Shown: positions 5,182 to 10,452 of the stretch, in pieces | How the letters are laid out: each line of letters begins with the position of its first letter | Position numbering within the stretch: the stretch's first letter is position 1 | Virus record (IMG/VR): IMGVR_UViG_3300044612_002560 | Location: 1-20,646 of that record | Source: a virus | Length of the DNA stretch: 20,646 nt | Reading direction: 5' to 3' (one strand) | Translations under genes and position numbers: made by a program | The notes under the pieces: model-generated | The model's input: only the letters and a program-made list of their open reading frames with translations | What the model was told of the DNA's origin: nothing | Database searches by the model: none

Positions 5182-5928
5182 TCACTTGATGAGCAGCTTC
5201 GAGATATCCCGCTTGTGAATCTGATCCGGAACCACACTCAGGAGCGGGGTCCAGAAATACTCCGCACCCTCGAAGAAGTAGTGCGTGACCTGCGACAGTC
5301 GCGTGCGGGTCTTGTCCCACCGCAACGCTCCACCATGAAGCAGATTCGAGGCCCAGATGAGGCACTGGCCCTTCTTCATGATCCCGAGTCGCTTGTTGCG
5401 AGTCAGGCCCTGCTGTACGACCAACCGAGCGATGTAATCCTCGTAGTGGTGATACGAAGACTCCTTGGCCGCCACGCCGATCGTCTGCATGTTCACCTCG
5501 GGCAACTTGTGGCTGCCTTCGTAGAACACGAGCGGGCCGTTATTTTCGTCCACATCTTCGAGGGCCAGCCAGACGCCGCACATCAACCCAGCAGGGTGTG
5601 AGTTGAAGTGAATCGTGTCGGAATGAATTTCCTGTTCCGTGCCGACCTTGAAGCTCAGTGTCTGGAACGGCAGAGGCTTGGATGCGTAGAGCCCCTTGAG
5701 GACAACATCCACGTTTTCGTTGAGAGCGATCGCCCTGCACGCCTCGGATGTCTTCCACAGGTCCTGCTTGCGGCCGTGCATGGCGTTGCCGAACACTGCA
5801 TTCATATCCTGGATGGCCTGATCCAGAATCGAAACGTCAATCTCCGGATCAAAAATCAGGTATCCAGATTCTTTGTACTGATCCCGAGCATCGAGCACGG
5901 AATCGTCCATTGTCCACACCTTGGTCAT
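5182..5928 (-). CDS. Phytanoyl-CoA dioxygenase-like Fe(II)/2-oxoglutarate enzyme
   Basis: This 248-residue protein matches the phytanoyl-CoA dioxygenase superfamily: Fe(II)- and 2-oxoglutarate-dependent oxygenases that hydroxylate or halogenate small molecules. The iron ligands are visible as HSD (His102, Asp104) and the distal His198 in NLLHGG, with Arg210 (TRLSQ) placed to bind the 2-oxoglutarate carboxylate. GVWLALEDVDENNGPLVFYEGSH is the characteristic core strand region. The ATG at 5928 follows GGAGAGAACGCA. It sits 19 nt after the stop of the GNAT-like gene, so the two are probably cotranscribed. In phages such enzymes are auxiliary metabolic genes or possible nucleic-acid modifiers. 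The substrate cannot be inferred; all catalytic residues appear intact. Confidence 0.88.
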   Translation of the reverse strand: MTKVWTMDDSVLDARDQYKESGYLIFDPEIDVSILDQAIQDMNAVFGNAMHGRKQDLWKTSEACRAIALNENVDVVLKGLYASKPLPFQTLSFKVGTEQEIHSDTIHFNSHPAGLMCGVWLALEDVDENNGPLVFYEGSHKLPEVNMQTIGVAAKESSYHHYEDYIARLVVQQGLTRNKRLGIMKKGQCLIWASNLLHGGALRWDKTRTRLSQVTHYFFEGAEYFWTPLLSVVPDQIHKRDISKLLIK

Positions 5929-5947
5929 TGCGTTCTCTCCGTGATGC

Positions 5948-6424
5948 TTAGAGGTTGTGGGCTTCAAAATACTTCGTCATGCGATTACGCGGTCCCTTAG
6001 TACCACCTGATCCAATTCGCCACACAAACAACCGCGCGTCCCCGGTTGTCTCCAACTCCGCAAACCCCGCGTCGCGGAGATGCGCCATCAGCTCGAAATT
6101 CTCCTCCTTCACCACCACCTTCGCATGCCGATCGGTGTGTCCCAGCAGTGTGTCCTTGAGCTGGTACAAACACACCGGAACCATCTCCATCGGGCAGGAG
6201 TAGATCAACAGGCGATTCGCCATGCCGTCCTTGGAGATCTGGAACCAGCCCTCGATGCCGTCAATCGATTCGATGAGAAAAATCGTACTGTGCTTGCCAG
6301 ACAATCTGTTTCTCACGATTGCGGCAGTATCCCCGCTCGGCCCGAACCTCTTGGAGCAACTCAGAATCCCCTTCGTGTCGGCGAGTGTCGCAATCCTGAC
6401 TCTTGCGTGAACGCTGTTTTCCAT
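5948..6424 (-). CDS. GNAT-like acyltransferase fold protein
   Basis: The ATG at 6424 follows GGGAAGGC and gives 158 residues. RVRIATLADTKGIL at the start, GIEGWFQISKDG and IYSC near the middle, and LRDAGFAELE towards the end follow the order of a GNAT N-acetyltransferase fold. The acetyl-CoA binding Q/RxxGxG/A motif is not clearly present, so it may be a divergent or inactive member or bind another acyl donor. It is directly upstream of the dioxygenase-like gene, and the pair could act on one substrate. The gene upstream runs 164 nt into this one in another frame, which is unusual here. Confidence 0.6.
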   Translation of the reverse strand: MENSVHARVRIATLADTKGILSCSKRFGPSGDTAAIVRNRLSGKHSTIFLIESIDGIEGWFQISKDGMANRLLIYSCPMEMVPVCLYQLKDTLLGHTDRHAKVVVKEENFELMAHLRDAGFAELETTGDARLFVWRIGSGGTKGPRNRMTKYFEAHNL

Positions 6425-9222: not shown

Positions 9223-9732
9223 ATGCGATTCGAGACATTTTCGGATTCTTCGTGCGTCGTTCAGGGATGCTTCGCCACGTCCCTTGGTCCGGTTTATGTG
9301 ACTCAAGGGTCAACGACCGTACTCCTCAAGGACGCCGACGAAGATTCCGTGGAGTTCAACCCTGCTGAATGTGAAGAACTCTGGCCCGCCCTCAAGGCGT
9401 TCGCCGAGACCGGCGACATTCGGAATGCCGACTACGGGCCGCGGATTCCTCCGCTTCCGGTGAAGCCGTGCGAGGGTGGCACTGGCTACGGGGCGAACTT
9501 CCTGAGTGAGGGGGATTCTCCGTGTCACGCCGGGATCTCTCAGGATGCCGGTTCCGAATTCGTCAATTTGCGAACTTCGGAGACTCCCGGCGCTGAGATT
9601 ACCCTCGACCAAGACACCGCCGAACGTCTCGCTCTCGTGCTCCTGCGGTTCGCGCGCACGGGGCGGATCGAGGAGAAGCAGGCCACGAAGGATGTGGCTG
9701 AGACGGTTGACCCGGCTGTGGATCAGAATTGA
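9223..9732 (+). CDS. Internally duplicated unknown protein
   Basis: The ATG at 9223 follows GGAAGGGGAACGG. A GTG at 9178 in frame is too close to the predicted transcription start near 9172 and is rejected. The 169-residue acidic protein consists of two similar halves: residues about 20-66 (strands, then FNPAECEELWPALKAFAETGDI) and 104-149 (strands, then LDQDTAERLALVLLRFARTGRI). Each ends with a helix and FAxTGxI. A linker with PRIPPLPVKPCEGG joins them. No catalytic residues are visible. It is the only protein gene between the face-to-face promoters and the tRNA cluster. Its role is unknown; the repeated beta-helix unit suggests binding. Confidence 0.75.
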   Translation: MRFETFSDSSCVVQGCFATSLGPVYVTQGSTTVLLKDADEDSVEFNPAECEELWPALKAFAETGDIRNADYGPRIPPLPVKPCEGGTGYGANFLSEGDSPCHAGISQDAGSEFVNLRTSETPGAEITLDQDTAERLALVLLRFARTGRIEEKQATKDVAETVDPAVDQN

Positions 9733-9799
9733 ACGCCCTATCCACCATGTGTGGAAAAGGATCGCTGCTCGCTTGAATCGCGAGTGGTGCAAGTTGAAG
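9733..9799 (+). other. Noncoding leader of the tRNA cluster with hairpins
   Basis: No gene is seen. CCAC (9742-9745) and GTGG (9751-9754) form a small stem, and CTCGC-TTGAATC-GCGAG (9768-9784) forms a 5-bp stem with a 7-nt loop resembling an anticodon arm. CGCGAG (9779-9784) can instead pair with CTCGCG (9879-9884) after the permuted tRNA, bringing the two tRNA halves together. Confidence 0.45.
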
Positions 9800-9800
9800 C

Positions 9801-9879
9801 AATCCGGAGATGCGAGGTTCGACCCCCGCCGGTGGCATTGGCCAGCCGCTGTAGTTTAATGGTAGAACGCCGTGATTCC
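9801..9879 (+). tRNA. Candidate circularly permuted tRNA-Gly (TCC)
   Basis: The 3' half comes first: loop bases AA, stem TCCGG (9803-9807), variable AGAT, T-arm around TTCGACC (9818-9824), acceptor CGGTGGC (9830-9836) and A. Then follow a 7-nt linker and the 5' half: acceptor GCCGCTG (9845-9851), TA, D-arm GTTT-AATGGTA-GAAC, stem CCGTG (9870-9874) and loop ATTCC. Reassembled, the acceptor has seven pairs (two wobbles) and the anticodon loop reads ATTCCAA with TCC, U33 and A37. The D-arm is glycine-like. Defects: one T-C mismatch in the anticodon stem and an extra A in the T-stem. It may be functional after circular joining or a rearranged remnant. Confidence 0.5.
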
Positions 9880-9948
9880 TCGCGTAGCTCAATTGGCAGA
9901 GCACCGGCAGACGTGCCGTCAGTGTTGGTTCGAGTCCAACCGCGTGGT
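9878..9948 (+). tRNA. tRNA-like element with collapsed anticodon loop
   Basis: D-arm GCTC-AATTGGCA-GAGC and T-arm GTTGG-TTCGAGT-CCAAC are perfect. The acceptor CCTCGCG/CGCGTGG has one T-T mismatch. The anticodon region is one or two bases short. Read one way, it is a GAC (valine-like) 6-nt loop AGACGT without U33. Read the other way, it is a 5-bp stem CGGCA/TGCCG closed by only GACG. It is unlikely to decode normally. It could be a decaying tRNA-Val or a tRNA-shaped RNA with another role. It overlaps the permuted tRNA half by two bases. Confidence 0.5.
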
Positions 9949-9950
9949 AT

Positions 9951-10035
9951 CCGACAGGCTGGGGAACCCGGTGAGTCGGCGAGCCGCAATCGTAACTGCG
10001 GTGACGACGGGGAAAATTAGACAAGGCTGACCCGT
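9951..10035 (+). ncRNA. Structured spacer with three hairpins
   Basis: Three consecutive stems fill the space before tRNA-Lys. CCGAC/GTCGG (9951-9955, 9975-9979) encloses CTGGG-GAA-CCCGG. CCGCA/TGCGG pairs 9984-9988 with 9997-10001. ACGGG/CCCGT pairs 10007-10011 with 10031-10035. It contains no plausible gene. The third hairpin resembles, from memory, the P4-P5 region of tRNA group I introns, but no other intron core part was found. Confidence 0.4.
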
Positions 10036-10040
10036 AGCGT

Positions 10041-10113
10041 TCTGGCGTAGCTCAACTGGTAGAGCAGTATACTTTTAATATGCCCGTTGGATGTTCGAGT
10101 CATCCCGCCAGAA
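10041..10113 (+). tRNA. tRNA-Lys (anticodon TTT)
   Basis: The complete cloverleaf has acceptor TCTGGCG/CGCCAGA and D-arm GCTC/GAGC. The anticodon arm GTATA-CTTTTAA-TATGC has one T-G wobble and gives TTT. The T-arm is GGATG-TTCGAGT-CATCC, and the discriminator is A. CCA is not encoded (TCC follows). The next gene's ATG lies only three bases after the discriminator. Confidence 0.96.
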
Positions 10114-10116
10114 TCC

Positions 10117-10452
10117 ATGCCAAAACCAGACACCAGCCTCCGCGTCGTCATCAACGACCAACCGTGGCACCTGATTTTCGCCACACGGAAGCGAATCTCC
10201 GAGGAAGCCAAGAAGCACCAACTCTCCTACCGACTCAACGGGATGTGCGACTGGGACGCGAGGACCATCTGGATCTACCGAGGTCTTACCGGCAAGGAGT
10301 TGATGGACACGATCACCCACGAGTATTTCCACGCCAAACGTGGGGATTGCACTGAGGAGTGGGTGACTCAGGCGGCTTCGGAGTTGACAGATATTCAGTT
10401 TGATGTGTTGGGGTACAGGAGAATGGAATCCCACAAGGACGTGGCGAGTTGA
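10117..10452 (+). CDS. HExxH metallopeptidase-like protein
   Basis: This 111-residue protein carries ITHEYFHAKRGD, a zinc-metallopeptidase HExxH signature (His68, Glu69, His72), followed by an acidic pair (CTEEW, about residues 80-81) that could supply a third ligand. The N-terminus looks beta-rich and YRLNGMCDWDARTIWIYRGL precedes the helix, as in SprT/ImmA-type minimal metallopeptidases. The ATG at 10117 is used because the in-frame upstream TTG at 10087 lies inside tRNA-Lys. No Shine-Dalgarno sequence exists, because the leader is tRNA. It precedes the terminase genes. It may process a phage or host protein, but the target is unknown. Confidence 0.75.
   Translation: MPKPDTSLRVVINDQPWHLIFATRKRISEEAKKHQLSYRLNGMCDWDARTIWIYRGLTGKELMDTITHEYFHAKRGDCTEEWVTQAASELTDIQFDVLGYRRMESHKDVAS

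What the first reader, a model, noticed from the sequence alone, without database searches (positions are those of the whole stretch)
9779..9884. Circularly permuted tRNA-Gly(TCC): 3' half encoded before 5' half
A tRNA 3' half (9801-9837) lies 7 bases upstream of a tRNA 5' half (9845-9879). Joined in reverse order they give a seven-pair acceptor, a glycine-style D-arm and a loop ATTCCAA with anticodon TCC. Flanks can hold the two ends together: CGCGAG (9779-9784) with CTCGCG (9879-9884), and AATC-CGG with CCG-(T)-GATT. Permuted tRNA genes are known in some algae and archaea. In a phage, joining would need a ligase, a splicing endonuclease or a ribozyme, none identified here. Weaknesses are an extra A in the T-stem and one anticodon-stem mismatch. 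A tandem tRNA-Gly duplication with both outer halves deleted would leave the same pattern as a dead remnant.
Basis: partly seen in the sequence, partly recalled or inferred. Interest (0 to 1): 0.85.

Follow-up and report, generated by a model that had tools for sequence, protein, structure and literature searches.

The report
Phage Y-RNA-like permuted tRNA mimic
A phage tRNA cluster contains a tRNA-like RNA encoded back to front; the same layout recurs in many other phages and matches bacterial Y RNAs, which copy the tRNA shape, so it is probably a small tRNA look-alike and not a tRNA that must be spliced together.

Summary
Window 9801-9877 encodes, in this order, a T-arm, a 7/7-paired acceptor stem closed by an 8-nt loop, a glycine-style D-arm, and a 7-bp basal stem with one bulged U. 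Neither half is part of a normal tRNA. About 20 other phage RNAs have the same permuted layout in tRNA clusters. Sixteen of 26 unbiased candidates pair 7/7, against 0 of 303 tandem tRNAs. A covariance model built without the window scores it 53.5 bits. Several of these phages encode Ro60/TROVE protein, some directly beside the RNA. Rfam's YrlA (Y RNA) matches them below its threshold. Y RNAs are known tRNA mimics, circularly permuted relative to tRNA, and need no ligation. Best reading: a compact, Y-RNA-type tRNA mimic excised from the tRNA transcript. It lacks the Ro-binding motif and rsr was not found in this fragment, so it is not filed as a bona fide Y RNA. A dead remnant remains the main rival, because no close relative of this phage was found.

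The parts
9765..9787 (+). leader hairpin (9765-9772 with 9780-9787) upstream of the element
   Evidence: folding
9801..9877 (+). permuted tRNA-like RNA (whole element as delimited here)
   Evidence: model R1 hit 9801-9876 at 53.5 bits; MFE of the 77-nt segment is the permuted cloverleaf
9801..9807 (+). basal (anticodon-like) stem, 5' strand AATCCGG
   Evidence: pairs with 9870-9877 with one bulged U at 9873
9812..9829 (+). T-arm with one bulged A (9815)
   Evidence: same-place insertion in a Big4 RNA
9830..9836 (+). acceptor stem, 3' strand, encoded first
   Evidence: 7/7 pairs with 9845-9851
9837..9844 (+). loop closing the acceptor stem
   Evidence: by position; other phage members have 3-18 nt between base 73 and base 1
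9845..9851 (+). acceptor stem, 5' strand, encoded second
9854..9868 (+). D-arm of glycine type
9870..9877 (+). basal stem, 3' strand CCGTGATT; its end abuts tRNA-Val
   Evidence: ARAGORN, Rfam tRNA 45.6 bits
10040..10117 (+). tRNA-Lys(TTT), next member of the cluster
   Evidence: ARAGORN, Rfam 59.3 bits

Best explanation
The element is a phage-encoded tRNA mimic of the Y-RNA (YrlA) kind, in a compact form. The RNA folds in the permuted order as encoded: basal stem, T-arm, acceptor hairpin, D-arm. It is cut out of the tRNA-cluster transcript when host RNase P cleaves the 5' end of the abutting tRNA-Val at 9877/9878 (inferred), and its 5' end is made near 9800 by another nuclease (inferred). It then works as a stable tRNA look-alike without anticodon or amino-acid end, docking proteins that recognise the T/D/acceptor elbow (PNPase, TruB, DusA or a Ro60 protein are the precedents from bacterial YrlA), or acting as a decoy for tRNA-directed nucleases. 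Shown: layout, pairing, recurrence in phages, association of the class with Ro60 genes. Inferred: expression, processing, partner and function.
For: A permuted CM built from 14 other phage RNAs finds it at 53.5 bits. Unbiased count: with neither half in a tRNA, 16 of 26 candidates have 7/7 acceptor pairs, versus 0 of 303 tandem tRNAs, 0 of 58 mixed cases and 0 of 104 slid controls; 0 of 741 in a second control. Structure of the class: 97.9% of cells paired, all 7 acceptor pairs change on both sides (members were partly chosen by pairing). TROVE/Ro60 in records with such RNAs, about 200 nt from the RNA in G064 and about 500 nt in G004. Named Ro-encoding actinophages Sebata, Sixama and Big4 also score. 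Rfam YrlA matches class members at 27-47 bits. Compact precedents without an outer stem: L021, two permuted RNAs tightly flanked by tRNAs. MFE of 9801-9877 is the permuted fold.
Against: No Ro-binding flank motif and no CAGCAA flank motif. No TROVE gene in the 20.6-kb fragment. Rfam YrlA gives only 13.1 bits here. Extending the folded segment upstream to 9765 gives a different optimum. The segment is no more stable than shuffles. T-stem bulge and bulged U in the basal stem. No relative of this phage was found, so conservation of this very element is untested. T33-TCC-AA around the junction looks like a Gly anticodon loop.
Confidence: 0.62

Rival explanations
1. Dead remnant: a tandem tRNA-Gly duplication (or a former phage Y RNA) lost its outer parts, leaving a 3' half before a 5' half next to tRNA-Val.
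For: T-stem bulge and one basal-stem bulge; A37-A38 and TTCC at the junction fit a Gly(UCC) anticodon loop; no relatives to show conservation; no Ro motif.
Against: No trace of a decayed 5' half upstream (score not above shuffles). Even same-isotype neighbours (62 pairs) never pair 7/7 across genes. Both breakpoints fall at the same anticodon position. The D-arm and acceptor are intact.
Confidence: 0.3
2. True circularly permuted tRNA-Gly(UCC) gene whose ends are ligated to make a functional tRNA, as in some algae and Thermofilum.
For: Junction in the anticodon loop, as in many algal permuted tRNAs (PMC3978253); a Gly anticodon TCC results from joining; ARAGORN accepts it at a relaxed threshold.
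Against: No bulge-helix-bulge motif by inspection; the anticodon bases are shared with tRNA-Val; the rotated RNA prefers a rod fold; no ligase or endonuclease among the window proteins tested; discriminator A73, where bacterial tRNA-Gly usually has U (own knowledge).
Confidence: 0.05
3. Chance similarity with no tRNA ancestry.
For: Single occurrence in an unrelated contig; no exact match elsewhere.
Against: Model score and pairing statistics.
Confidence: 0.02

Closest known systems
Bacterial Y RNA YrlA (Rfam RF02553; Salmonella YrlA structure PDB 6CU1)
   Same: T-arm, acceptor-like hairpin and D-arm in that order, circularly permuted relative to tRNA (PMC11472068); works without ligation; recognised by tRNA-modifying enzymes (PMC8394870).
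   Different: The window element has only a short basal stem, no long Ro-binding stem, scores 13.1 bits against a cut-off of 69, and lies in a tRNA cluster with no rsr seen.
Phage Y RNAs and Ro-like proteins of actinobacteriophages (Y RNAs in mycobacteriophages, cited in PMC12282133; Ro-like genes)
   Same: Phage-borne, near tRNA genes, same permuted core; a Big4 RNA even shares the T-stem insertion.
   Different: Those carry a GTTAYC motif 24-25 nt before the T-stem and a Ro gene in the phage; the window has neither in the fragment seen.
Circularly permuted tRNA genes of algae and Thermofilum pendens
   Same: 3' half encoded before 5' half with a short intervening sequence closing the acceptor.
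   Different: Those have a BHB-type junction and are spliced and ligated into tRNA (PMC3978253); here no BHB motif and the junction overlaps tRNA-Val.

Membership tests
Bacterial/phage Y RNA (YrlA) | permuted tRNA-like module: T-arm, acceptor hairpin, D-arm | tested here: met
Bacterial/phage Y RNA (YrlA) | Rfam YrlA gathering score | tested here: not met
   13.1 of 69 bits; other phage members 27-47 bits
Bacterial/phage Y RNA (YrlA) | long basal stem with Ro-binding motif | tested here: not met
   no GTTAYC or CAGCA motif upstream; tRNA-Val follows with zero spacer
Bacterial/phage Y RNA (YrlA) | rsr (TROVE) gene in the same genome | tested here: inconclusive
   none in the 20.6-kb record, which is probably a fragment; the host could supply it
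Bacterial/phage Y RNA (YrlA) | binding to Rsr or PNPase | not testable with these tools
   needs biochemistry
Circularly permuted tRNA gene | 3' half before 5' half, ends in a tRNA loop | tested here: met
Circularly permuted tRNA gene | rotated sequence recognised as a tRNA | tested here: inconclusive
   ARAGORN none at default, Gly(tcc) at 60% threshold; rotated RNA folds as a rod
Circularly permuted tRNA gene | bulge-helix-bulge at the junction | tested here: not met
Circularly permuted tRNA gene | mature ligated tRNA in cells | not testable with these tools
   needs RNA sequencing
tRNA pseudogene remnant | recognisable remains of the missing halves, or intact copies in relatives | tested here: inconclusive
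   no remains upstream; no relatives found

The most novel reading that the evidence does not exclude
Phages carry a wide, largely unannotated class of permuted tRNA mimics, and the compact members in tRNA arrays (window, L021a, L021b) are a Ro-independent subclass made by ordinary tRNA processing, working as anticodon-less tRNA decoys or protein docks. A second subclass with a conserved CAGCA(A) flank and an outer stem was found in phages where no Ro gene was seen.
Probability: 0.3. Interest if true: 0.72.

Novelty: new variant of a known kind. Interest (0 to 1): 0.5.

Why it matters
It turns an apparent broken or exotic tRNA into a member of a recurrent phage RNA design that tRNA finders miss and that Rfam's YrlA model scores below threshold. 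If confirmed, tRNA clusters of many phages also make tRNA look-alikes, which bears on how phages escape or manipulate tRNA-cutting defences and RNA decay, and on how Y RNAs arose from tRNA genes. The class is testable in Ro-encoding actinophages that already grow on laboratory hosts.

Tried and rejected
(1) Ligated permuted tRNA: see rivals. (2) Decayed 5' half upstream of 9801: alignment not above shuffles. (3) Phage T4 rnaC and rnaD as the same thing: rnaC has a T-arm at its 3' end in normal order, rnaD none; no hit above background. (4) PAK_P3 sRNA2, reported to share a T-loop stretch with tRNAs: normal-order tRNA-like RNA by eye, not permuted. (5) Integration-site (attP) idea for the 3' half: no integrase among the proteins tested, and the 5' half would be unexplained. 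(6) Relatives of the phage by TerL, portal, capsid, the ORF after tRNA-Lys, and by element DNA: none. (7) Folding energy as evidence: not decisive. (8) Model score alone as evidence: tandem tRNAs reach similar bits, so pairing counts and ARAGORN status were used instead. (9) The strand filter misses minus-strand tRNAs, so its PERM flags for minus-strand loci were not used without a second check.

Full report
What is there. The window is a complete 20,646-base IMG/VR record with head genes of a tailed phage: terminase, portal, capsid. Between an ORF ending at 9732 and the terminase region lies a tRNA cluster with tRNA-Val (9878-9948) and tRNA-Lys (10040-10117). Its two halves are as described. 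Read as it stands, 9801-9877 makes a basal stem AATC-CGG/CCG-U-GAUU, a T-arm with one extra A, a 7/7 acceptor stem closed by the loop ATTGGCCA, and a D-arm TAGTTTAATGGTAGAAC. The last base of the basal stem, 9877, is directly followed by tRNA-Val base 1.

Is it chance? In 741 distinct adjacent normal tRNA pairs from phage contigs, the acceptor 3' strand of one and the 5' strand of the next never pair 7/7; 38 pair 6/7. In an unbiased count over the fetched contigs, taking only the first D-arm after each T-arm, 26 candidates have neither half inside an ARAGORN tRNA. Sixteen of these pair 7/7 and four 6/7. The tandem-tRNA class has 0 of 303 at 7/7, the mixed class 0 of 58, and a register-slid control 0 of 104. 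So a permuted class exists, and the window belongs to the 7/7 group.

Relatives of the layout. A structural script and a covariance model built from 14 of them, without the window (R1), found about 20 permuted tRNA-like RNAs in phage tRNA clusters. R1 scores the window 53.5 bits. Tandem tRNAs reach up to about 62 bits, so score is necessary but not sufficient. In the 21-sequence alignment 97.9% of cells are paired, against 39-51% in slid versions, and every acceptor pair changes on both sides. Membership was partly selected on pairing, so the unbiased count is the cleaner evidence.

What the class is. The same order defines the tRNA-like module of bacterial Y RNA YrlA, a known tRNA mimic that superposes on tRNA only with a circular permutation (PMC11472068; PMC8394870). 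Rfam YrlA matches class members at 27-47 bits, below its cut-off of 69, and the window at 13.1. Ro60/TROVE genes occur in 4 of about 16 records with permuted RNAs and in 3 of about 53 without (Fisher p 0.046; hand-counted records, contig length not controlled). More telling is adjacency: about 200 nt in G064 and about 500 nt in G004. The phage proteins are full-length Ro-like ORFs. Named Ro-encoding phages Sebata, Sixama and Big4 carry R1 and sub-threshold YrlA hits. Y RNAs in mycobacteriophages are already reported (cited in PMC12282133), and TROVE proteins in jumbo phages too (PMC7824862). So the kind is known.

Subclasses. A GTTAYC motif lies 19-26 nt before the T-stem in RNAs of Ro-encoding phages G002, G004, Sebata, Sixama and Big4 (one further G002 copy, L008b, has it at a different distance). 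CAGCA, with an outer stem, lies 27-44 nt before it in 11 RNAs of other phages. The window and L021 have neither. L021 carries two compact permuted RNAs, 72 nt between tRNA-Pro and tRNA-Ala and about 90 nt between tRNA-Phe and tRNA-Pro, both with the permuted cloverleaf as MFE. The window is of that compact kind. Its T-stem extra base is matched by an insertion at the same place in a Big4 RNA.

How it most likely works. The RNA is functional in the permuted form. Ends would come from tRNA processing: RNase P at tRNA-Val on the 3' side, another nuclease near 9800 (inferred). It offers a tRNA elbow without anticodon or CCA end. From YrlA, candidate partners are PNPase, TruB, DusA and Ro60 (PMC8394870); a decoy for an anticodon nuclease has been suggested for YrlA (PMC7790460). 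None of this is shown for the window.

Limits. No relative of this phage was found in viral or genome contigs, so conservation of this very element is untested. Folding depends on the segment chosen: 9801-9877 gives the permuted fold, 9765-9877 does not, and neither beats shuffles clearly. A dead remnant therefore keeps a substantial share.

Noticed in passing
window 9950-10039: 92 nt between tRNA-Val and tRNA-Lys fold better than shuffles (z -2.6) and by eye recall a cobalamin-riboswitch core, but Rfam gives no such match even at E<=10.
   Followed up: partly
L073, L057, L089, L116, L110, L013, L088, L139: Permuted RNAs share an outer stem and a CAGCA(A) motif 27-44 nt before the T-stem, often with CCTG after the 3' strand; no Ro gene seen in the records tested; may be a distinct Y-like family.
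   Followed up: partly
L166 1080-1147: Microbacterium phage Big4 annotated tRNA-Ser(cga) overlaps a permuted Y-like RNA hit (1112-1186; YrlA 1092-1199) and may be misannotated.
   Followed up: partly
L116 (G011): Four permuted tRNA-like RNAs within about 850 nt of one 15-kb phage contig.
   Followed up: partly
L013 11682-11793: Sub-threshold RAGATH-33 RNA match inside a phage tRNA cluster.
   Followed up: no
L123 1909-2172: T4 stable RNAs rnaC and rnaD are still of unknown function; rnaC has a normal-order T-arm at its 3' end, not a permuted core.
   Followed up: partly
window 9878-9948: tRNA-Val has C1-G72 and a U3xU70 mismatch in the acceptor, and its leader can extend pairing with the trailer.
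   Followed up: no
window 5182-5967 (-): Phytanoyl-CoA dioxygenase-family (PhyH) protein in a phage fragment.
   Followed up: no
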